A DNA stretch of 64,000 nucleotides from Henckelia pumila (lineage: Eukaryota > Streptophyta > Magnoliopsida > Lamiales > Gesneriaceae). Both the position numbers and the translations under genes were made by a program. The notes below the pieces were generated by a model that had not been told where the DNA came from, did not search any database, and worked only from the letters and a program-made list of their open reading frames with translations. Shown here piece after piece: positions 1,058 through 50,433 of the stretch (position 1 is its first letter; the number at the start of each line of letters is the position of its first letter). The DNA lies in assembly GCF_033568475.1 (NCBI RefSeq), contig NC_133122.1, positions 181,927,449 to 181,991,448 of the forward strand, given 5' to 3'.

Positions 1058-4000
1058 ATGTATCCAGATTCAGTTACCTTGGCTACTTTCTGTTTCCTCG
1101 TTGCATTCACGGCTGGTGGTGATCACCTCGCCGGTGATGTTTCGATTAACTGCGGTTCAAAATTAACTTCTGCGGCAAAAAATGGCAGAGAATGGGTCGG
1201 TGATATGCATCCGATGTTGTCTTCTTCATTACAAATAAAGGGCTCCTCAACTGTAGCAAGAAACTCCATCTCAGCTGACACAATTCCTTACACAACTGCT
1301 CGCATCTCTCATTCCGCATTCTCCTACATTTTTCTAGTCAAACCAGGTCAGATATTCATCCGCCTTCACTTTAATCCTGTTCCATATAAAGGTTTCCAAA
1401 GATACAAGGACTTGTTCACAGTTGAAGCTGCTTCTTTCACTTTGCTTCATAACTTTAGTGCTTCGCTCACTGCCGATGCTCTTGGTATGAAATCTTTTGC
1501 CAAGGAGTTCTGTATCAACATTCAAGAAAATCAAATCCTCCATATGGTTTTCTCTAGTCAATCACGACATACTTATGCTTTCTTGAATGGCATCGAGATA
1601 AATTCAGTACCTTCACACCATTCTTATTTACATGGTGGAGGAATCGATAAAACCACTGCACTTGAAATGGTTCATAGACTAAAAGTAAAACAGGATTCTT
1701 TTTGGTCAACTGATGATTCCAATAGCATGTTTGGGATGTGGGAAATGTCTCCCAAAGTAAATGCAGACGGAGTCAACAACGTTACATGGAAAGTATCTGT
1801 GAGCGTGGGATTTAGATACTTGGTGAGACTTCATTTGTCTGAGATGGGACTCAAGATGGCAGAGACAGGAGATCTAACTTTCAAAATTTTCAGTGCCGAA
1901 TTTACGGCTGATGCAGATGTTGTCATGGTTGTTGAGAGGGGTAGCAATGGTAATCTGAGGTACAAGGATTATCTGGCGATGATGAAAGGGCGGAAAGAAG
2001 AATGTAAGCGTGACCTATTGATATACCTCAAATCGAATGATCAACTCCTGGAACCAAATAGGCCCCTTGTGGGATTTGAAATATTTAAAATCAGCAATCC
2101 TGACAATAGCCTTGCTTCTCCAAATCCAATACCCTTAGCACCGGATTCGCCATCCTTGAACATCTTAACTTCTCTATCAGTTCTAGGACACAGAAATGCA
2201 CTTGCAACCATTTTGGTAGCTGTACTTGCTTTGATAAATATCAGTGTTTGTAAGTTGCGAGAGATTTCAGAAGCTAACAGAACAAAGGAGGAAAATAAGA
2301 CATCACCCAGAGCTGGAAGAATCTGTCGTCACTTTTCGTTGGCCGAGATAAAATCAGCAACCAGAAATTTTTCGAGTGAACATATCATTGGAAAAGGTGG
2401 ATTCGGTAATGTTTTCAAAGGCCTCATTGATAATGGCAAAGAGATTGTTGCCATAAAGCGGTTAAAGCCAAGCTCTACGCAAGGAGCACAAGAGTTTTTG
2501 ACCGAGATCGAAACACTTTCTGAGCTGAGACATGTGAATCTAGTACCTCTGATTGGCTACTGCAATGAGCCTGGAGAAATGATTATTGTTTATGAATACA
2601 TGTCTAATGGAACGCTTGCTGACCACCTATACAACCATGTGAGAAATAATAGATCTATTTCATCTCTCAACTGGAAGCAATGCCTTAACATTTGCATTGG
2701 TGCTGCTAGAGGACTAGACTATCTGCACACAGGCCATAGAATTATACACCGTGATGTAAAGGTTTCCAACATCCTGTTGGATGAAAATTTGACAGCTAAA
2801 GTTTCAGACTTTGGCTTGGCCAAACATGAAAACATGACTGATTTGCATAGCTTCGTTAGTACAGATGTTAAAGGAACACATTGGTACGTAGATCCATATT
2901 ATTTGAACAATCGGAAACTAACGAGAAAAAGTGACACATATGCCTTTGGTGTAGTGTTGCTGGAAGTGCTATGTGGAAGACCACCATTCGATCCAAGGGT
3001 TGCACAAGATGAACAGATTCTGATTAAGTGGACTAAAGATAAGATAAGTAAAGGAGAAGTTGATCAGATTGTATCATCGAGTCTGAGGGAAGAAATTTCA
3101 CCAGTTGGCCTCAAAATTTTTGTGAAACTTGCTGAAAGGTGCTTGAATGGTGAACCAAAGAAACGGCCAACAATGGCCCAAGTTGTGCTAAAACTAGAGT
3201 CCATTCTTAAACAACATGAAAGAATGAGACACGTAGGACAAAATGAGACAAGAAATGTTGTTGATGATATCTGTCCACCTAATGATGCAACCAACACAGC
3301 AGTAGACTCAGATGAAGGAATAGAAGAAGCTACAGAGGCTAGAAAAGGAGAAGTTTCAGCGATTGGTATAGATTTTGGGACTTCATACTCTTGCGCTGGT
3401 GTGTGGCAACACGACCATGTCCATGTCATTAGCAATGACCACGGTTACTTAACAACGCCATCTTATGTCGGATTTTCAGAATATGAACAGCTCATCGGTG
3501 ACGCCGCCAAGAAACAAGCCAATAGGAATTCAGCAAACACCGTATTCAACTTTAAGAGGTTGATTGGTGGGAGATTCAATGATGCCACAGTGCAGAAAGG
3601 TAGCGAGTTGCGGCCCTTCAAGCTCGTTGCTGGATACAACGATAAGGCCATGATTGAAGTGAATTACAAGGGTGAACAGAAGCAATTTTCACTGGAGGAG
3701 ATCTCTTCCATGCTGTTATTGAAGATGAGGAAAATTGCTGAAACATACCTTGGTTCATCTGTGAAGAATGCTATAGTTTCTGTTCCTGCTTACTTTAACA
3801 TTTCCCAGCGTAAAGCTATCAGGGATGCTGGAGCAATTGCTGGTCTCCATGTGATTCGTATCATCAAGGAACCAACAGCTGCAGCCCTTGCCTATGGTCT
3901 TGACAAGAAATTAACCACTGCTGATGAGAATAATGTTTTGGTTTTCGACCTTGGTGGTGGTAACGTTAACGCCTCTCTTTTTACAATCGAGCAAGGCATT

Positions 4001-4915
4001 TTCGAGGAGAAGGCAGCCGTAGGCTGCACCCATCTTGGAGGTGAAGATTTTGATGACAGGATGGTGATGCACTTTGTTCAGGTATTTCAGCAGAAGAACA
4101 AGATCAACATTACCAGAAACCAAAGAGCTGTCAGTAGATTAAGGAGCGCCTGTGAAAGAGCAAAGAGAGTACTCTCATCCGTTAATCTAGCCAACATCGA
4201 ACTTGACAGCCTGCATCAGGGTATTAACTTCTATTCCTCCATTTCTCGAGCCAAATTCGAGGAGCTTAACATGGACTTGTTCATGAAGTGTATGGAACCA
4301 GTTGAGAAGTGTCTGAGGGATGCCAAGGTGGACAAGAGCAGTGTCCATGATATAGTACTTGTTGGTGGCTCCACTAGAATTCCCAAGGTCCAGCAATTGT
4401 TGAAGGACTTGTTCAATGGGAAAGATCTGTGCAAGAGCATTAACCCTGATGAGGCCGTCGTTCGTGGGGCTGCTATCCATGCTGCCATTTTATGCGGCGA
4501 GGGAAGCGAAAAGCTGCAGGATGTCTTGCTTCTGGAGGTGACGCCTCTGTCCTTAGGTGTAGAAACTGCTGGCGGTGTTATGACAGTGTTGATGCCCAGG
4601 AACACCATGATTCCGACCAAGAAAGAGCAGATCTTTACTACTTACATTGACAACCAGCCTTCTGTGTTGATTCGGGTGTACGAAGGAGACAGAGTTAGGA
4701 CCAGGGACAACAACTTGATCGAAACCTTGGAGCTCTCAGGGATTCCTCCTGCTCCCAGAGGGGTTCCTAGGATTAGGGTGTGCTTTGACATCGATGCCAA
4801 CGGTATTCTGAACGTGTCCGCCGAGGACGAAAGCACAGGGCAGAAAAGCAGAATCTTTACAGGACACTCTTATGTTTGCATTCCATCCAATTACACAATC
4901 GCTCGAATATGCTGA
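1058..4915 (+). CDS. Receptor-like kinase (malectin/FERONIA type) fused to a truncated HSP70
   Basis: A single intronless frame of 1285 residues joins two families. Residues 1-20 look like a signal peptide. About 25-350 resemble the malectin-like ectodomain of CrRLK1L receptors (INCGS and WVGD near the start, GFEIFKISN near the end). About 380-398 is a short hydrophobic membrane segment. The kinase spans about 435-710: glycine loop GKGGFGNV at 445, VAIK lysine 467, HRD aspartate 566, DFG aspartate 584. The usual DPEY after the activation loop reads DPYY (Tyr614). A linker of about 55 residues leads to an HSP70 of the cytosolic HSC70 type starting at GIDFGTSYS (Asp772), with the lysine equivalent to K71 at 833, VGGSTRIPK, the interdomain linker near 1155-1161, and most of the beta substrate domain to about 1266. 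The alpha lid and EEVD tail are absent, and an unrelated tail of about 18 residues closes the frame. In DLGGGTFD the Thr and Asp are Asn969 and Asn971. CrRLK1L genes are often intronless, whereas plant HSC70 genes usually have an intron, which suggests a retrocopied HSP70. Expression is unproven. Confidence 0.85.
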
Positions 4916-4956
4916 TGGCCCTGTTACACAATCGCTCGAATATGCTGGTGGCCCTG
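4891..4956 (+). repeat. 33-bp tandem duplication at the fusion gene stop codon
   Basis: Two copies of a 33-bp unit (4891-4923 and 4924-4956) differ at one base. The flanking words TATGTTTGCATTCCATCCA at about 4871 and 4959 make a larger imperfect repeat of about 87 bp. The stop codon of the upstream ORF (4913-4915) lies inside copy 1, so the last residues of the protein are repeat-encoded. Confidence 0.9.
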
Positions 4957-7679: not shown

Positions 7680-7829
7680 GGGAAAGTCTATGCTACCCAA
7701 GGGAACTGCCATTGGGGTAGCGTGGCAGAGTATGATTGGTTAAAATCAGTGGGCCCCACTAATTTTAACCAATCACGAATTGTCACGCTACTTCAAGGGC
7801 AGTGCCCTTGAAATAACATAGACTTTCCC
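7680..7829. mobile_element. 150-bp Mutator-like MITE
   Basis: Terminal inverted repeats start GGGAAAGTCTATG and end CATAGACTTTCCC, and the inner sequence is also largely self-complementary (AACCAATCA and TGATTGGTT). The flanks AAAAATTAT (7671-7679) and AAAAATTAC (7830-7838) make a 9-bp duplication with one mismatch, the length typical of Mutator-like elements. Confidence 0.8.
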
Positions 7830-21673: not shown

Positions 21674-23455
21674 ATGGCGGTTCACGGTGATCAGAGTAGT
21701 CATGGTAGTGGAGGTGGACGCTGGGGAGACGGTGATCGTGATCATCGTCGGGAGTGCCATCATCGTCATCGTGATGATCATCGTCGTTTCAGTATGCATC
21801 GGTTCATGCAGATGGATCCTAAGCCCTTGGGTGGAGGCGAGACTCTTGAGGATGCTGAGAACTGGTTAAAGCGCATGGAGAGTTGTTTTAAGACATTCCA
21901 TTGTATCGAGGAGTATAAGATGGAGACGCTTGGTTATCTATTGGAGGGACGAGCCCGTAAGTGATGGAGGTTCACTTCTGCACCGTTCATTGCGGCGAGA
22001 GGAGTTGATATTTGGTCCGAGTTCTGCATAGCTTTTCAGAAGCTATATTTTCCTCCTGCACTTTGCCAGGAGAAGGCGAGCGAGTTGTTGGGTCTACGTT
22101 AGAGAGCCATGTCAACTGACGAGTACCAGCAGAAGTTCTTCGACTTGTTATCCTATTGCCCTGAGATTGCTGTCAACTCCGAGATGAAGTATAATCTGTT
22201 TATTCAAGGCCTTAATCCAGAGATTCATGACCGGGTAGCAGTTGGTGATGATATGACTTATGAGGGATTGGTGAGCCGAAATCACCAGGCGGAGGATAAC
22301 ATTCGGCGTAACAGGTATTTCTCTCAGTCTAGGCCTGCGAGTTCTTTGGATCCCCGTGCTCAGTCTTTCAAGAAGTCTGGATCTACTTCTTCTTCCTCTG
22401 GTTCCGGTGGTGTTGTTCATTTTGGGAAGAAGGAGAAGTGCGATCATTGTGAGAAGAATCATCCGACAGACAGATGTCGTAAAGATTCTGGGGCATGCTT
22501 TCGTTGTGGAGAGGTTGGTCATCTTCAGAGAGATTGTCCACTAGCTGGGGGAGGCGGTTCTGGTTCAGGATCGGGTTCTCAGGCTACCGTTCAGCAGAGG
22601 TCGCAGGGACAGTCTGCTGGGAGTTCTCATCTGAAGCTGCGGACTTTTGGTCAGGTGTTTGCCTTGAGACATGATCAGGCAGTGGAGGAGAATGAGAAGG
22701 TCATCGCAGGTACATTTCTGTTATATGACATACTTGCTCTTGTACTCATTGACAGTGGTGCATCTCATTCCTTCATTTCTGCACATTTTGTTAAGAAACA
22801 TAAGTTACCATGCATTGCACTAGACGTAGTGATTTTTGTTTCTACTCCGACGGGTCAATCTGCATTGGCTAAGCGTCTAGTGATGAGTTGCCCTTTAGAG
22901 TTTGAAGGGAATATTCTGGTAGCGAATCTCATGGTTCTTACGATGGAAGACTTTGATTGTATTCTGGGGATATAGATGTTGACTACCTATCGAGCTTCAG
23001 TGGACTGCTATCAGAGATTAGTACGCTTTCATCCAGTTGGGAGTGATAGTTGGTTTTTTTATGGTGAGGGAGCGCGACCTTCGATGCCGTTGATATCAGC
23101 TTTGAGAGCCCGTCGAGCTCTAGAGTCTGGCGGGGAAGGCTACCTCATCTATGTAGTTGATTTGTCCGCTGAGAATGTTGGTATAGAAAGTCTGCCAGAT
23201 GTGAATGAATTCCCAGATGTATTTCCAGATGAGATTCAGGGTTTTTCGCCTGTTAGGGAAGTCGAGTTTGACATAGAGTTAATGTCGGACACTTCGCCTT
23301 TTTCTCGAGCACCATATCGTCTGGCTCCGTCAGAGATGCGCGAGTTGAAGAATCAGTTGCAGGATCTTTTGGATAAGGTATATATTCGTCCTAGTGTATC
23401 TCCTTGGGGAGCTCCTGTTCTCTTTGTGAAGAAAAAGGATGGGTCTATACGTCTC
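21674..23455 (+). pseudogene. Truncated gag-pol of a Tekay-like Ty3/Gypsy element
   Basis: One frame with three internal stops (about 21962, 22100 and 22973) carries the gag domain (WLKRMESCFKTF, then the part from 22109), a CCHC zinc knuckle (CFRCGEVGHLQRDC at about 22498), the aspartic protease active site (LIDSGASHSFIS at about 22745), and the start of reverse transcriptase (FPDVFP at about 23212, APYRLAPSEM, WGAPVLFVKKKDGS). Homology ends abruptly near 23455, before the RT catalytic YxDD. RNase H, integrase, chromodomain and 3' LTR are missing. All three stops lie in the same frame, so decay has been by substitution. The sequence beyond 23455 is unrelated. Confidence 0.88.
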
Positions 23456-36806: not shown

Positions 36807-38506
36807 GTGGTATCAAAGCCAGGTTGTTCAGATCAAGCGATTAAATTAATCAATTGTACAAAAATTTTTAAGCCTCGGTTTTTTGAAACAAAACAAATTT
36901 TAAAATTAAATTTTTCGACGGGCAAAACACGGGCAGCGAGGGGCAACGACGGGCTGCCCGGGATCGTCCCGGGCGGCTCGGGAAAATTTATTTTTAATTT
37001 TTTAATTAAAATTTTAATATGTTAAAATTCTATTTTTGGTCCGATCGAAAATTGTTTTTGATTGGTCCACGAGGCGTCGGATCGAATTGTTCGAGTCCGA
37101 AAATTTTAAAATTGATTTTGGATAAATTTGAATTTTTGGAAAATTTATAGATTTTATCCGTTAAATCATATTTTATGAAATTAATTATTTTTGGTACAAT
37201 TGATGATAAGATACGATCTTATGGAAATATTGAGTAAAATATGATTTTATGTATAAAATTGGATTTTATATGTAAAATATGATTTTATTTGATAAAAAGA
37301 TAAAATATGATTTTGTATGTAAAATAAGATTTTATATATGGAATATGATTTTATCCTTTTTAAATTTAATTGCCATTGCATGTTATCCAATAAATTAATT
37401 TTGAATTAAAAATTATTGGATAAGGATGATCGATTGCCATGACCAATTTTGTAGGTGTATGTTAGGAATTTACATTTGTTTTTATTGTTGTTGGGTTTAT
37501 TAATGGGCCTGGTTTATGACCCAATATGAATTGTCATATGTAATAAAAGTGGGCCTGGTTTATGGCCCGTTCCCACCCCTTAAAATGTATCCCCTACTTG
37601 TCATAGTTATTTATTGTAAATACATTAAACTTAGTGGGAGACAAAGATTTGAAGAAATGGTGGGCCCAGCAGACAATGAAGACTGAAGAAATATAAATTG
37701 GAAGTTCAATGTAATAGGATTGCATTGCATACCTGCATATTACCTAGGATTGGACTTAGACTCGTGATTGGCAACCACGGGTCGATTAGTAATGGAATCG
37801 ATCATCCTAAAATATAATATATGATATTATCATTGTATGCATGTTTAGACTAAATTGTATGAATCCCGCAAGCATACAAATTTTAAATGATGAGACAAAT
37901 TTTCAAAATTAAAATCCCTCATTTTAAATATGATTTAAAATTGATATCAAGATTAAAAGGAAATTTAAATATTGTTTAAATGTTCCTACCTTCCATCAAC
38001 GATCAATGTATGAGATGCTACCCGCGGATACGGTCCGGCTCATATTATTGGGGGGGCCCGTTCGTCGGAAAGCTGTACATTGGATCAACACATGTTGTAA
38101 GTTGGGTGGAACTCCCATGGGATCGGCTCATATTATTGGGGGATCCACATGGCGACCGTCCATCACAACTTAATATTGATGGGTCATCTTGACGTGTCAC
38201 AATAAACGGCGTCATATTATTGGGCCCTTATTGGACATGAGGTAAAAACGTGGAGGTTGCTTTGGAAGCAATTGGGCTCTACCTTTTGAAAATTATGGTT
38301 GGCTGATATTATTCGGGACCATAGTTTGTCAATTGGACTCCATGTTCCCACTAAGGAAAACAGTTTCCCGTTTTCACTAGAGGGTAGTGAAATCGTTAAA
38401 ATAGTGGGAGTGAGATTCATAAAATAAATTTCGCCTATTTTATGTCTTAGTAAATTAATTAAACAATCACTGATTATTGTATGTTTCTTTTCAGTATTTC
38501 ATTAAG
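36807..38506 (+). other. Copia leader with four spaced copies of a TCATATTATTGGG motif
   Basis: This 1.7-kb untranslated leader between the primer-binding site and gag holds no gene. From about 38034 to 38318 a motif of the form GGCTCATATTATTGGG recurs four times at 85-92 bp spacing (about 38035, 38124, 38208 and 38301), the last two degenerate. The open frame 37980-38192 is not a recognisable protein. Confidence 0.75.
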
Positions 38507-39640
38507 ATGAATTCGCGCAATCCACTATTCTCTATTCTCGAACAAAATAAACTGACTGACGCAAACTATACGGAATGGTTCCGTAAGTTGAAGATTGTCT
38601 TAACCTCGGAGAAGATGCTCTACGTGTTAGAAAAATCTCCTCCGAAGGAAGCACCAGCTGATATAAGTCCGGAAGAGTTGGCCAAACTTTATATATGGTG
38701 GGACCATGATATCAAGGCCAAATGCTATATGCAAGCTTCGATGTCTGATGAACTCCAGAGGCGATTTGAGGATACCGTGAATGCTGCTGACATTCACGTA
38801 CAACTCAAGGAACTTTTTGGGGCTCAATCAAGAGCTGAAAGGTTCGCTACTGTAAAAGAGCTAATGACGTGTCGCATGCGTGAAGGGACTTCGGTCCGTG
38901 ATCATGGGGTACGAGTGATTTGGCTCATTCAGAAGTTGGTAATGCTTGATTTGGTATTGGAGCATGAACTCAATGTGGACTTATTACTTCTCTCTCTTCC
39001 TTCATCGTTTGACGGTTTTGTGGTGAATTTCAATATGAACAAGATAGAGGCCTCCCTTGAAGAGATGGTCAATATGCTTGTAACATATGAAGCCACTTTA
39101 AAGAAGGATAAACCAGTTCTCTTGGTAGGCTCCTCTTCTTCAGCTAAGAAGGGGCCAAGTACAAAGGGTAAGAAACGTTCTGCCCCATCCAAGAAAACCG
39201 GACCCGAGAAGAAGAACAAGAAAAAGGCTTCAAACATGGAAAAGTCCAAGGATGTTTGCCATCACTGCAAGAAACCCGGTCATTGGAAACGTAACTGCAA
39301 GGAATATCTAGAGCAGTTGCGAACTGCGAAGGGTATGTTCTATATTGAAATAAATGTTTCACTTAATACTACTTCTTGGGTATTGGATACCGGATGTGGA
39401 TCTCACATTTGCAATGATTTGCAGGTGATGACAAGAAGTCGCAAGCTTAGAATGAGTGAGACCCAGCTGAGGCTCGGAAATGGTTCTAGAGTTGAAGCCA
39501 AAGCTGTGGGAGACGTTTATTTAATTTTGCAGAACGATTTTAAGTTACTTTTGAGAGATGTTTTATTTGTTCCAGATTTGATTAAAAACATTATTTCTGT
39601 TTCTATGCTTGATAGAGATGGTTTTTCTTGCAATTTGTGA
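38507..39640 (+). pseudogene. Copia gag and protease start
   Basis: The start was set at the ATG at 38507 (MNSRNPLFSILEQNKL). The gag domain is followed by a Lys-rich stretch, a CCHC zinc knuckle (CHHCKKPGHWKRNC at about 39257) and the protease motif WVLDTGCGSH at about 39380. The frame closes at 39640 after a frameshift near 39620-39640, where the related sequence continues one frame over (39628 onward). Confidence 0.9.
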
Positions 39641-41395
39641 ATGGGATTTGCAATATTTACAAGAATGAATGTTTGATTGAAAATGGACAACTTGAAAACA
39701 ATCTATATAATTTAAAATTAAAAGACGTTCCAATAAATTATGTTGATAAACCGGTAACAACGAACAAAAGAAAAATCGATAGTCAAAACCCGGCAAACCT
39801 TTTGGCATGCTAGGCTAGGTCATATTTCCTCAAGGAGGATGAACAAGCTAGTGGGAGAGGGCATGTTTGATATGTCTGATATTAACTCTCTACCTACTTG
39901 TGAGTCCTGCCTGAAAGGAAAAATGACTAAATCTCCTTTTAAGGGGAAACCTGAGCGTAGTCAAAATCTGTTGGATTTGATCCATACAGATGTTTGTGGT
40001 CCATTTAGAATTGGTACTCAATTTGGCCACACCTACTCCATTACCTTTACTGATGATTATTCAAGGTATGGGTATTTATATTTAATGAAATATAAGTCTG
40101 AAGAATTTGAAAAGTTCAAAGAATTCAAGGCTGAAGTAGAAAACAAGCTAGGTAAAAGTATTAAAGCACTTTGATCGGATCGAGGTGGAGAATACTTAAG
40201 TACCGAGTTTTTGGACTATCTGAAAGAGAATGAGATTCTCTCTCAGTGGACTCCTCCTATGACACCTCAGTTGAATGGTATATCGAAGCGTCGTAATCGA
40301 ACTTTGTTGGACATGGTTCGATCCATGATGAGCTTCACTGAGCTTCCACCTTCGTTTTGGGGCTACGCGCTTGAAACGGCGGTGTTGTTGTTGAACAACG
40401 TCCACACCAAAGCAGTGGATAAAACACCATACGAGTTATGGAATGACAAAGCTCCTAAGTATTCGTACTTGAGGATTTGGGGATGTCCTGCTTACGTGAA
40501 GCAGACAGTGGGAGATAAGTTGGATAGTCGATCCACCTTATGTTATTTTGTAGGATATCCAAAGAATTCAATCGGATATTATTTCTATCATCCTACTGAA
40601 ACAAAAGTGTTTGTTTCAAGGAATGCCATCTTCTTGGAGAAGGAGTTCTTATTGGATAAGAAAGGCGAGATGATAGAACTCGAAGAAATTCGAGAAGAAC
40701 CCAAGATACAAAATAATGATCCTTCACCTCAGGAACCATTGATGGACACGCCTATACCTAGAAGATCCGAGAGGACTTCTAGACCTCCTATTCGATATGG
40801 TCTTCTTCTTGAAGGGGATCAAGATGAACCCGACGTTGGATGTGATCCAAGAAACTTCAAGGAAGCAATTTCTGATGCGGATTCAAATTTATGGCTTGAA
40901 GCTATGCAGTCGGAAATAGATTCGATGCATACAAACCAAGTTTGGTCTTTAGTAGATCCTCCCGATGGAATTGTTCCAATAGGGTGTAAATGGATCTACA
41001 AGAGAAAGCTTGGGCCTGATGGTAAGGTATTGACCTACAAGGCACGATTGGTGGCGAAAGGTTATACTCAAAGACAAGGAGTTGACTATGATGAAACCTT
41101 TTCACCAGTTGCAATGTTCAAGTCCATAAGAATCCTTATTGCCATAGCTTCTTGGTATGACTATGAGATATGGCAAATGGATGTGAAGACTGCATTTCTT
41201 AATGGAAACATTAAGGAAGAGGTCTATATGATGCAGCCTGAGGGATACACATCCATGGGAAGCGAGCATAAGGTATGCAAGCTTCAGAGATCGATCTATG
41301 GTCTCAAACAAGCATCAAGAAGTTGGAACCAGAAATTTGATGAAACAATAAAGGATTTTGGTTTCATCAAGAACCCGGAGGAACCATGCGTGTAA
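39628..41395 (+). pseudogene. Copia integrase and first half of reverse transcriptase, broken
   Basis: The pre-integrase segment from 39628 shifts frame again at a run of T at about 39800. The integrase zinc-binding part (HARLGHIS, CESCLKGK) and the D-D core follow, interrupted by a TGA at 40172-40174 just before SDRGGEY. The third catalytic position of the D,D,E triad is lysine (codon at 40286) instead of glutamate in the NGISKRRNRT context. RT follows (WKWIYKRKLGPDG type motif at about 40985, ARLVAKGYTQ, QMDVKTAFLNG), and a TAA at 41393-41395 ends the frame. Confidence 0.9.
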
Positions 41396-42421
41396 AAGAA
41401 AGTAGTTAAAGATGCAGTGACATTCTTAGTACTTTATGTTGATGACATCTTACTCATTGGGAATGATGTAGGGATGTTGCAGTCAACAAAGATATGGTTA
41501 TCAGGTAGATTCTCGATGAAGGATTTGGGTGAGGCATCCTATATTCTAGGGATACAGATCTATAGAGATAGATCTAAGAGAATGATAGGACTCACTCAAG
41601 CTACCTACATCGACACTATATTGAAAAGGTTTTCAATGGATGGGTCCAAGAGAGGACATCTACCTATGTGTCATGGAGTTTCTCTATCCAAGTCCATGTG
41701 TCCCAAGACTGATGAAGAGATAGAGAAAATGATACATGTACCATATGCGTCAGCCATATGTAGTATCATGTATGGGATGATATCTACCAGACCGGATGTA
41801 GCATTTGCTCTGAGTGTCACGAGTAGATATCAAGCCAATCCCGGTCAAATGCACTGGAAAGCCGTGAAGGACATTCTTAAGTACTTACGAAGGACTAAGA
41901 ATATGTTCATGGTATATGGAGGAAGAGAACTGAAATTGGAAGGCTATACCGACTCTAGCTTCCAAAGTGACGTGGATGACTCGAAGTCAACCTCTGGATT
42001 TGTGTTCATGCTCAATGGCGGTGCTGTCTCTTGGAAGAGTTCCAAGCAGAACACCACAGCGGATTCCACCACTGAGGCAGAATACATTGCGGCATCAGCT
42101 GCTGCTAAAGAGGCCGTTTGGATGAGGAATTTCGTCCAAGAGTTGGGCGTTATTCCTGAAGTTGTTGGTCCAGTCCCGGTGTACTGTGACAACACGGGTG
42201 CCGTTGCTCAGGCAAAGGAACCAAGGTCTCATCAAAGATCCAAACACGTACTGAGGAAATACCATATCATCCAGGAGATCGTGGAAAGAGGAGACATCAC
42301 TGTCGAGAGAGTGGCCTCTGCAGACAATATCGCTGATCCACTTACTAAGCCCTTGCCAGGACCATTATTTGACAAACATCGCGAAGCAATGGGACTGTGT
42401 AGTATGACTAGTTGGCTTTAG
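41396..42421 (+). pseudogene. Copia reverse transcriptase end and RNase H
   Basis: After the TAA at 41393 the same frame continues with the RT active site LYVDDILLIGND (about 41435), ASYILGIQIYRD, and the RNase H part (GYTDSSFQSD, SVSWKSSKQ-like, STTEAEYIAAS, DNTGAVAQAK). The stop at 42419-42421 is the natural end, directly before the polypurine tract. Confidence 0.92.
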
Positions 42422-48611: not shown

Positions 48612-49844
48612 CTATTCCTCCTCCGAAGCAGAAGCTGACTTGGCAAAGTCATCAAGGGCCGAACGATCAAAGGGCGGCACACGTATGTCAGTGGAGTAGG
48701 ATTGGGAAGTGGCATGATGCTCTAGTCGAGCCATACTGGTGCGAAGATCATCCAAGAAGTCAAATATGGCAGAGAAAATGCGACGTGTCCCCCTCGGAGC
48801 TCTGGCGTGTACAGGGGCACCTGCGGGATGATCTTCAGCCTGATCTAGAGCTGCCTCTTCTTGAACTCAAGCCTCCCTGGCTTCATCTGCAACTGTAGGT
48901 GGTGGAACTGGGGGATCTCGTGCATGATAGTGAATGTTGCGGCTTGCACGGTTCTTATACCATCCACCTGTCAAAAGATAAAATACATACCAGTCATAGC
49001 ATGGGCAGTGAGCACGTGCTTCGGCGTTGGTGCAAAAGATGCCTTGCCAGTCAAATCGATGCCGCAAGTAGCCAAAATCCGCGAAACTTTAATGGCGAAA
49101 GGAGCGTGCTGCTTAGCATTCGGAGCGCAAGCCAACTGAGCGACAGTGCACATATGTGAGATCAAGATGCTCGCCAATGGAATCGCACTGATATCTCCCA
49201 ACCCGTACAACATCTTATGAATCAAATACATATCCAGGTCACGCACTCATTGTTTCCAGACTTCCGAGGGATGATGTTTGCACTGATGAAGTAGCAGATG
49301 AGGCAATCAATCAAAGGGAGAGTGGTAGGGAGGATGCTGTAACGAGAACCAGTTTTGACCCTACGGTAGGTGAGGCACGACATAGCAAGGTTGAAATTGT
49401 AGGCAGGTCAGACAATATAGCATCATATTGGTTGTAAACAACCGGAGGGCCCTCATTAGGAATGTGCAAAAGCTGGGCCAAGAACTCACTCGTCACCTCG
49501 ATACGAACACCCTTCACAAAAGTTTGAATGGTTTTCATCCCTGTCTTGTCTTTTTCCTTAATATTGGCATAAAACTGCCATAACAACTCAGGAAAGTAAT
49601 CACCTCGGATGTCCAGAATGGACCCCCAGCTGAATCTATCAAACTTTGCTCGCAGTGGTACCTGAGCATCAATGGTGGGATGGATCGATTTCTTAACAAT
49701 CATAGACTTACCCTTCATCTTCTCGTACCACTTATAATTTTCCAAACTAGTGAACCTAGAATCATAAAAAACAGCCCCTTGACCACTGCGAGAGGACGAA
49801 GCGCCGCCCCTCGCATGCTTACTAACTGATTTTCTCGGCGCCAT
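48612..49844 (-). pseudogene. Decayed plant-transposon-protein (Transposase_32-like) ORF of Tat-B
   Basis: The ATG at 49844 (MAPRKSVSKHARGG) opens a frame with FTSLENYKWYEKMKGK, FDRFSWGSILDIRGDYFPELLWQFYAN and VRIEVTSEFLAQLLHIPNEGP-like sequence. This resembles the putative plant transposon protein domain carried by some Tat/Ogre-type elements. The frame then shifts: the part at 49246-48971 continues in another frame, and a TGA follows EAREA near 48868. The last piece ends ASASEEE with a stop at 48612-48614. Several lesions make it non-functional. The biochemical role of this domain is unknown to me. No gag or pol of this family is present, so the element was deleted or non-autonomous. Confidence 0.75.
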
Positions 49845-50433
49845 ATCAAACGAGCAACTAACAGACAACGATAACACTTCACAATATCGAAGACAAAAAC
49901 ACAACTTCCAAATACAAAGAAACTCCTTCACAATCACAGTCTAATCTCGCAACTTAAACCGTTCAAACAACACAGTCAATAATAGTGCACGCACAATCAC
50001 CAATAAATCAACTCCTTTGATAATTCACAAACAATCGATTTTAATCAAGAAGCCCAATAAACAATGAACCATGTTTCGAACACAAGCACGATATCAATGA
50101 CCACTTTAAGAATCAACAACAATAACCCCAGTCAAATGCCCAACACAATCTTCAACAAGATTCGTCCAACGACACAATCTCAAACCAAATCCAAAAACAA
50201 TCGAGAAACTATAAATATCAAAGCCAAAGAGGAAAGGAAAGCCATGCTTACCCAAAGGAAAACCAACAAGATGCCCGAAGAAATTTTTAGAACAGGAGAA
50301 ACAGGGGCGGCCGGAAGAACTAGAGGCGGCGCGGAGCAGAGGTTCACAGTGGTGTGGAGTGGCAACCGAACAGAGGTGTCTGGGTGTAAGGTGGTGGCAC
50401 GGAGGTGTATACGGGTGAAGGATACGAAGGTGA
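49845..50433 (-). other. Tat-B internal sequence upstream of the decayed ORF
   Basis: No recognised gene. The minus strand contains a CT- and GC-richer stretch (about 50290-50430) that could belong to the element's leader. It ends where Tat-A LTR homology begins at about 50434. Confidence 0.45.

What the first reader, a model, noticed from the sequence alone, without database searches (positions are those of the whole stretch)
1058..4915. A receptor kinase fused in frame to an HSP70
One uninterrupted frame encodes signal peptide, malectin-like ectodomain, membrane segment, complete kinase domain, then an HSP70 nucleotide-binding domain and most of its beta substrate domain. I know of no described plant receptor kinase with an intracellular HSP70 module. 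If expressed, it would place a chaperone-like nucleotide or peptide sensor on a cell-wall receptor.
Basis: partly seen in the sequence, partly recalled or inferred. Interest (0 to 1): 0.92.

Follow-up and report, generated by a model that had tools for sequence, protein, structure and literature searches.

The report
Cell-wall receptor kinase fused to HSP70
A plant gene joins a FERONIA-like cell-surface receptor kinase to most of an HSP70 chaperone in one protein; two other sequence assemblies hold diverged copies of the same fusion with the same altered ATPase site, so it is a real gene and may be an immune receptor carrying a built-in bait.

Summary
Confirmed. ORF 1058-4915 (1285 aa, no intron) encodes signal peptide, FERONIA/ANXUR-type malectin ectodomain, membrane segment, intact RD kinase, then HSP70 from its codon 2 to the end of the beta substrate domain; lid and EEVD are missing. 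It is not an assembly join: two other full-length fusions (P0081, P0086; 84% and 83% identical) were found among 5.77 billion proteins, with the same junction and 3' cut. Both halves of the three form one clade (support 100), so one fusion event preceded their split. All three carry T204N/F205V/D206N in the ATPase site while keeping D10, T13, K71, E175, D199. Residue changes avoid HSP70-invariant columns when the lineages are pooled (p 0.0006), not significantly in the window's own branch. Two of the three nearest unfused relatives end in a RIN4/NOI-like tail (sub-threshold); 99 of 107 compared receptors carry a second kinase there, mostly without canonical motifs. Best reading: a receptor clade with an exchangeable C-terminal slot, here holding an HSP70 that binds ATP but hydrolyses it poorly, used as effector bait or sensor. 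The gene is well supported; the mechanism is inference. Expression was not testable; the species was not identified.

The parts
1058..4915 (+). single-exon ORF of the fusion protein, 1285 aa plus stop
   Evidence: homologous full-length fusions P0081, P0086
1058..1117 (+). signal peptide, about residues 1-20
   Evidence: read from the sequence; no predictor run; the N-terminus is among the most hydrophobic windows of P0081 and P0086
1136..2152 (+). malectin-like ectodomain, residues about 27-365 (boundaries approximate)
   Evidence: FERONIA/ANXUR structures, best E 2.3e-44; PF11721 weak; PF12819 in P0081
2195..2263 (+). membrane segment, residues about 380-402
   Evidence: Kyte-Doolittle maximum 2.32 at 382-400
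2372..3196 (+). RD protein kinase, residues 439-713; K467, HRD 564-566, DFG 584-586
   Evidence: Pfam; motifs
3197..3328 (+). receptor C-tail and junction, residues 714-757; homology to unfused receptors' tails ends about residue 750
3329..4858 (+). HSP70 module, residues 758-1267, from HSP70 codon 2 to the end of SBD-beta
   Evidence: AF2 model and Foldseek to Hsc70
3359..4501 (+). HSP70 nucleotide-binding domain, residues 768-1148
3962..3970 (+). codons for N969 V970 N971, in place of the conserved T204 F205 D206 of Hsc70
   Evidence: 3 of 3 fusions; references T 27 of 28, F 28 of 28, D 28 of 28
4520..4540 (+). interdomain linker DVLLLEV, residues 1155-1161 (canonical DLLLLDV)
   Evidence: D1160E in 3 of 3 fusions
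4541..4858 (+). HSP70 beta substrate-binding domain, residues 1162-1267, no lid
4859..4915 (+). 18-residue tail differing between the three fusions, and TGA stop
4891..4956 (+). 33-bp tandem duplication (97% alike) at the ORF end; the TGA lies in the first copy

Best explanation
This is a genuine gene, born once when a cytosolic HSP70 copy was joined in frame to the C-tail of a malectin-type (CrRLK1L) receptor kinase, and kept open since in at least three sequenced lineages or paralogues. SHOWN: architecture, single origin, shared junction and 3' cut, absence of lid and EEVD, shared T204N/F205V/D206N with the other tested nucleotide-contact residues kept, and, for the lineages pooled, avoidance of HSP70-invariant columns. 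INFERRED: the protein sits in the plasma membrane with kinase and HSP70 in the cytosol; the module binds ATP but hydrolyses it poorly, so it tends to stay in an ATP-bound conformation. Most likely mechanism: it is an integrated bait. The receptor clade has a C-terminal slot filled by different domains (a mostly degenerate second kinase, a RIN4/NOI-like tail, HSP70), of kinds that pathogen effectors are reported to attack. An effector or a J-domain protein that docks on the HSP70 module would change its conformation and switch the neighbouring intact kinase, starting defence signalling.
For: Three full-length fusions, scoring 2931, 2417 and 2405 bits against 1918 for the next protein, among 7981 scored candidates; they are the only ones with both halves among the 179 proteins listed. 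Same junction and 3' cut. One clade on the receptor half (support 100; sister to P0163, P0164, P0181 at 99) and on the HSP70 half (100). No gap among the three over 501 HSP70 residues. Active-site changes 3 of 3. Changes at HSP70-invariant versus variable columns: pooled, window branch polarised by the consensus, 20 of 197 vs 66 of 299, p 0.0006; P0086 4 vs 26, p 0.002. Neutral simulation to 134 residue changes: mean 5.2 stops, none in 6 of 2000 runs; to 100 changes: 3.9, none in 29 of 2000. Slot exchange: 99 of 107 receptor rows have a second kinase; 9 of 114 second kinases read K/HRD/DFG against 110 of 122 first kinases; P0163 and P0164 tails have PF05627 AvrRpt-cleavage as only Pfam hit, E 0.0068 and 0.0065. 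Cytosolic HSP70s are effector targets (HopI1, Pi23226; PMC8982422 section 13). RGA5-like NLRs exchange C-terminal domains in a similar way (PMC4246468 passages); Lr9 and Sr43 kinase fusions are proposed decoys (PMC10260399 passages). HSP70 is also joined to TIR-NLR domains in the gene models P0064 and P0019. DnaK T199A keeps allostery but greatly lowers ATPase (PMC12406271 passages).
Against: No transcript, protein, localisation or effector-binding evidence. P0081 and P0086 are unnamed Logan contigs of 4086 and 4465 bp; RNA or genomic origin, and whether they are species or paralogues, is unknown. Constraint is weak one lineage at a time: window against the pair p 0.005 unpolarised but 9 of 197 vs 22 of 299, p 0.26, on its own branch; P0081 p 0.29; shared departures on the common stem 19 vs 46, p 0.077. 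Between P0081 and P0086 the module (87%) is less conserved than the ectodomain (92%). The NOI-like match has 16.2 bits, below Pfam's 20.3, is absent in P0181's tail, and with the whole proteins is E 0.18 for P0164 and not listed for P0163. The PDB title of 1ATR says T204 is not essential for ATP hydrolysis in Hsc70 (listing), so weak hydrolysis rests on D206N and the triple change. D1160E sits at the linker position whose D393A change stops DnaK adopting the ATP-bound state (PMC12406271 passages). Second-kinase motif counts come from BLAST alignments and may misread gapped sites. The HSP70-NLR proteins may be gene-model read-throughs.
Confidence: 0.4

Rival explanations
1. Endogenous in-cis sensor: the HSP70 module is not a bait but a regulator of its own kinase, sensing ATP, unfolded peptide or J-domain proteins at the membrane, for example coupling cell-wall or heat stress to kinase output.
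For: ATP-contact residues D10, T13, K71, E175, D199 are kept and the linker is nearly intact; the NBD models fairly well (pLDDT 62-93 by blocks of ten) and matches Hsp70 NBDs (rmsd 2.6-3.1 A in several rows). DnaK T11 and K70 are the gamma-phosphate sensors (PMC12406271 passages); their counterparts T13 and K71 are kept.
Against: Lid and EEVD are missing; sister receptors do without HSP70 and carry other tails or domains in the slot. SBD-beta models poorly (blocks 40-61).
Confidence: 0.24
2. Passive fusion: the receptor works alone and the HSP70 is tolerated baggage or a membrane-tethered platform under weak constraint.
For: The HSP70 module evolves fast (stem 0.26, tips 0.08-0.14, against 0.012-0.018 for the canonical plant copies in P0005, P0008, P0012 and P0083); constraint is not significant on the window's own branch (p 0.26) or in P0081 (p 0.29); the module (80-87% between fusions) is less conserved than the kinase (91-95%).
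Against: No stop or gap in the module in three lineages; pooled changes avoid invariant columns, p 0.0006; in the window comparisons the module is about as conserved as the ectodomain (80-82% vs 82-83%).
Confidence: 0.23
3. Decoy for the plant's own HSP70 cochaperones: the ATP-trapped module titrates J-proteins or nucleotide exchange factors at the membrane.
For: ATP-state mimic by sequence; the NBD is the docking site for such partners in solved complexes listed.
Against: No interaction data; D1160E lies in the linker that J-domains contact (contact described in PMC13012618 passages).
Confidence: 0.1
4. Assembly join or pseudogene.
For: The window copy lies in a stretch with retrotransposon remains and its 3' end carries a tandem duplication.
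Against: Two other fusions with the same junction; open frame against 3.9 to 5.2 stops expected without selection.
Confidence: 0.03

Closest known systems
CrRLK1L receptor kinases (FERONIA, ANXUR)
   Same: Malectin ectodomain matching solved FERONIA/ANXUR, one membrane segment, RD kinase, uninterrupted reading frame
   Different: A 510-residue HSP70 module follows the kinase
Lamiales malectin receptors with a second C-terminal kinase (e.g. P0166 Primulina, P0135 Paulownia, P0129 Buddleja)
   Same: Receptor half 57-62% identical; extra domain attached after the first kinase
   Different: The extra domain is a kinase, mostly without canonical motifs, not HSP70
Primulina P0163/P0164 and Henckelia P0181 single-kinase receptors
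   Same: Sister group of the fusions (support 99)
   Different: Tail ends in an AvrRpt-cleavage/NOI-like motif in P0163 and P0164, sub-threshold; first kinase reads HGD for HRD
Kinase fusion proteins with proposed integrated decoys (Lr9 WTK6-vWA, Sr43)
   Same: Kinase fused to a non-kinase domain, decoy proposed (PMC10260399 passages)
   Different: Lr9 has tandem kinases and vWA/Vwaint, Sr43 domains of unknown function; here a transmembrane receptor with malectin ectodomain and HSP70
NLR-ID receptors, RGA5-type C-terminal exchange
   Same: C-terminal domain replaced between relatives by kinase or AvrRpt-cleavage domains (PMC4246468 passages)
   Different: Those are intracellular NLRs
TIR-NLR proteins with HSP70 (P0064 Medicago, P0019 Trifolium)
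   Same: HSP70 joined to an immune-receptor domain set
   Different: NLR scaffold, HSP70 keeps the canonical GGGTFD (sequences); may be gene-model joins

Membership tests
CrRLK1L receptor kinase | malectin-like ectodomain | tested here: met
   9 FERONIA/ANXUR chains, E 2.3e-44 to 1.6e-28
CrRLK1L receptor kinase | membrane segment and kinase with intact K, HRD, DFG | tested here: met
   (hydropathy only for the membrane segment)
CrRLK1L receptor kinase | protein ends soon after the kinase (recalled) | tested here: not met
   550 residues follow the kinase match; it is therefore a variant
HSP70 chaperone | complete nucleotide-binding domain fold | tested here: met
   Pfam 1-495 of 599, Hsc70 alignment, Foldseek
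HSP70 chaperone | active-site residues D10, T13, K71, E175, D199, T204, D206 | tested here: not met
   five kept, T204N and D206N in 3 of 3 fusions
HSP70 chaperone | alpha-helical lid and C-terminal EEVD | tested here: not met
   frame ends 18 residues after the HSP70 match
HSP70 chaperone | ATP hydrolysis and client binding | not testable with these tools
   needs purified protein
Integrated-decoy receptor | extra domain is a copy of a reported effector target | tested here: met
   falls among cytosolic plant HSP70s; effector targeting from PMC8982422 section 13
Integrated-decoy receptor | extra domain exchanged between close relatives | tested here: met
   second kinase in 99 of 107 rows, HSP70 in 3; the NOI-like tail is sub-threshold
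Integrated-decoy receptor | effector binds the domain and triggers defence | not testable with these tools
   no assay
Integrated-decoy receptor | original biochemical activity of the target lost or altered | tested here: inconclusive
   active-site changes suggest it; 1ATR title warns that T204 alone is not essential

The most novel reading that the evidence does not exclude
Transmembrane malectin receptor kinases of Lamiales form an integrated-domain receptor class with an exchangeable intracellular C-terminal slot (degenerate kinase, RIN4/NOI-like tail, catalytically altered HSP70), the cell-surface counterpart of NLR integrated decoys, and this HSP70 member is a membrane-anchored, ATP-trapped bait that reports on pathogen attack on the chaperone system.
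Probability: 0.3. Interest if true: 0.92.

Novelty: new variant of a known kind. Interest (0 to 1): 0.73.

Why it matters
Receptor kinases are thought to read signals outside the cell and NLRs those inside. A receptor kinase carrying a swapped-in, altered copy of an effector target on its cytosolic side would join both jobs in one protein and would name HSP70 as an evolutionary battleground. It also gives a natural membrane-tethered HSP70 with an altered ATPase site. The prediction is directly testable in lab plants.

Tried and rejected
Assembly artefact or one-off join: rejected by P0081 and P0086. Pseudogene by drift: disfavoured. Independent fusions: disfavoured by both trees. A first conservation test with 41 mixed references at >=60% identity gave p 0.004, 0.013 and 0.16 for window, P0081 and P0086; I replaced it by 30 references >=80% identical to a Salvia copy because the first set held odd tandem gene models; this gave Fisher p 0.005, 0.29 and 0.002. 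The two sets disagree on which of P0081 and P0086 is significant. On checking I saw that the window's 134 private changes also cover the stem of the P0081/P0086 pair; polarised by the consensus, the window branch alone gives p 0.26, pooled lineages p 0.0006, P0081 and P0086 alone p 0.001. For this I lowered the best explanation from 0.42 to 0.40 and the in-cis rival from 0.25 to 0.24, and raised passive fusion from 0.20 to 0.23. Seven of the module's 503 columns were dropped (fewer than 20 references). One search was the same script stopped by an error before any test. The 30 references include several copies of one protein and some animal and algal sequences.

AlphaFold2 of the whole cytosolic part with 19 rows was poor (mean pLDDT 53.5, pTM 0.44; kinase mostly under 50) and is not used. 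The HSP70-only model is moderate (71.7, pTM 0.68; SBD-beta blocks 40-61); over its whole length it superposes loosely on Hsc70 (rmsd 10.4 A). I considered that the second kinases are PTI1-like: 7 of 114 hold the motif GYHAPEYA, a signature recalled from memory, so this is not claimed in general. The receptor rows are those of the listed hits with at most 1310 residues, first kinase match starting at 380-460 and at least 60% identical. No RNA family at gathering score and no tRNA in the window. Alignments A1 and A3 were not used. Species identity was not settled: the tree puts the receptor half with Gesneriaceae and the window's contig is 204,334,071 bp. Henckelia pumila has contigs of 201 and 234 Mb, but Phlomoides rotata has one of 201 Mb.
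Full report
OBSERVATION. The frame 1058-4915 is open from ATG to TGA, 1285 residues, without intron. Pfam finds kinase 439-710 and HSP70 768-1267, covering profile positions 1-495 of 599. The ectodomain hits solved FERONIA and ANXUR chains, best E 2.3e-44. The kinase keeps K467, HRD and DFG. GC at third codon positions is 0.36 in the kinase and 0.52 in the HSP70 part, as expected if the halves have different histories.

IT IS NOT A LOCAL ACCIDENT. Two searches of 5.77 billion proteins, restricted by length to about 707-2250 residues, listed 179 proteins; three of them have both a receptor kinase and an HSP70: the window itself (P0022, on a 204,334,071-bp contig), P0081 (1291 aa) and P0086 (1302 aa). 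One search lists the best 120 of 2892 matches from 7981 scored candidates; the fusions score 2931, 2417 and 2405 bits and the next protein 1918, so another full-length fusion of similar divergence among the scored candidates should have been listed. Shorter fragments would be missed. A third search with the receptor half (404-1286 residues) added no further fusion among its 120 listed proteins by their precomputed Pfam domains. P0081 and P0086 come from Logan contigs of 4086 and 4465 bp without names; whether they are transcripts is unknown.

JUNCTION AND END. Receptor-tail homology to unfused relatives runs to about residue 750; then, after some seven residues, the HSP70 begins at its second codon (EATEAGKGE in P0086 against MAGKGE). 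All three fusions part from canonical HSP70 just after ESTGQKS, where it continues to TITNDKGRLSK, and then have short tails that differ. The absence of an intron in the HSP70 half suggests that a processed copy was captured; that plant cytosolic HSP70 genes usually have one intron is recalled, not tested.

ONE ORIGIN. On the receptor half (107 rows, FastTree, local SH-like support) the fusions form one clade (100), sister to P0163, P0164 and P0181 of Primulina huaijiensis and Henckelia pumila (99), inside a Gesneriaceae group with dual-kinase receptors (98). On the HSP70 half (105 rows) they again form one clade (100) among plant HSP70s with a stem of 0.26. The window is 83% and 82% identical to P0081 and P0086 in the ectodomain, 91-92% in the kinase and 80-82% in the HSP70 parts, with no gap in the HSP70 module; P0081 and P0086 are 92%, 95% and 87% identical to each other in these parts.

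THE HSP70 MODULE IS ALTERED, AND CONSTRAINED OVERALL. With Hsc70 numbering from the alignment, D10, T13, K71, E175 and D199 are kept and T204, F205, D206 are N, V, N in 3 of 3 fusions; among 30 references T204 is T in 27 of 28 readable rows, F205 and D206 are kept in 28 of 28. Private changes fall on invariant versus variable columns as 12 of 197 vs 43 of 299 (window, p 0.005), 7 vs 18 (P0081, p 0.29) and 4 vs 26 (P0086, p 0.002); shared departures 19 vs 46 (p 0.077). The window's set also holds the stem of the other two; on the window's own branch, polarised by the HSP70 consensus, it is 9 vs 22 (p 0.26). Pooled with that polarised set the lineages give 20 of 197 vs 66 of 299 (p 0.0006). An earlier, looser reference set gave p 0.004, 0.013 and 0.16 by a related test. 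A neutral simulation to 134 residue changes leaves 5.2 stops on average and none in 6 of 2000 runs; to 100 changes, 3.9 and 29 of 2000; to 80 changes, 3.1 and 75 of 2000. In DnaK, T199A (the counterpart of T204) greatly lowers ATPase without harming allostery (PMC12406271); the PDB title of 1ATR states that T204 is not essential in Hsc70. That D206 matters for hydrolysis in Hsc70 is recalled. I infer binding with weak hydrolysis; it is not proven.

THE SLOT. 99 of the 107 receptor rows carry a second kinase after the first. By BLAST alignment 9 of 114 second kinases keep K/HRD/DFG against 110 of 122 first kinases. The tails of P0163 and P0164 hit PF05627 (AvrRpt-cleavage, the RIN4/NOI signature) as their only Pfam match, E 0.0068 and 0.0065, under the curated cut-off; P0181's tail does not, and with whole proteins the match is E 0.18 for P0164 and not listed for P0163. 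So one receptor clade appears to hold three different C-terminal partners. A similar exchange in RGA5-like NLRs, with kinases and AvrRpt-cleavage domains, supported the integrated-decoy idea (PMC4246468 passages). Cytosolic HSP70s bind HopI1 and Pi23226 (PMC8982422 section 13). Dual-kinase CrRLK1L-1 proteins without ectodomains are resistance candidates in sunflower (PMC8866362 passages), and unusual receptor-kinase architectures are noted in wheat (PMC11968617 passages). The passages seen of the NLR integrated-domain survey PMC4759884 name RIN4 and Exo70; its main text does not mention HSP or heat shock.

VERDICT. The gene is real (about 0.95). That it works as an integrated bait is my leading mechanism (0.40); passive fusion (0.23), an in-cis sensor (0.24) and a cochaperone decoy (0.10) remain. 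No report of a receptor kinase with HSP70 appeared in the listings and 80 of the held library. Rated a new variant of a known kind: kinase fusion or integrated-domain receptors.

Noticed in passing
P0163 residues 824-850, P0164 residues 841-852: Primulina receptor kinases, sister to the fusions, end in a RIN4/NOI-like AvrRpt-cleavage motif (IPRFGTWD, sub-threshold in Pfam); their first kinase reads HGD instead of HRD.
   Followed up: partly
114 dual-kinase relatives, e.g. P0166, P0135, P0129: Lamiales malectin receptors commonly carry a second C-terminal kinase, mostly without canonical catalytic motifs by BLAST alignment: a possible large tandem kinase-pseudokinase receptor class.
   Followed up: partly
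P0064 (1029-1406 and a second copy), P0019: Medicago and Trifolium gene models join HSP70 to TIR-NLR domains.
   Followed up: partly
window 4891-4956: 33-bp tandem duplication, 97% alike; the fusion's stop codon lies in the first copy.
   Followed up: partly
window 22109-22975 and 38477-42421: Remains of two LTR retrotransposons (aspartyl protease with zinc knuckle; copia-type gag and RVT_2).
   Followed up: no
window 49311-49937 (-): ORF with a below-cut-off match to Putative plant transposon protein (PF20167, 36.3 of 45 bits).
   Followed up: no
window 7698-7810: Inverted repeat, 56-nt arms 80% complementary, 1 nt apart; looks like a foldback or MITE-type element.
   Followed up: no
P0145: Sesamum alatum gene model with Exo70 ahead of a malectin receptor kinase; perhaps a gene-model join, but Exo70 is a known NLR-integrated domain.
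   Followed up: no
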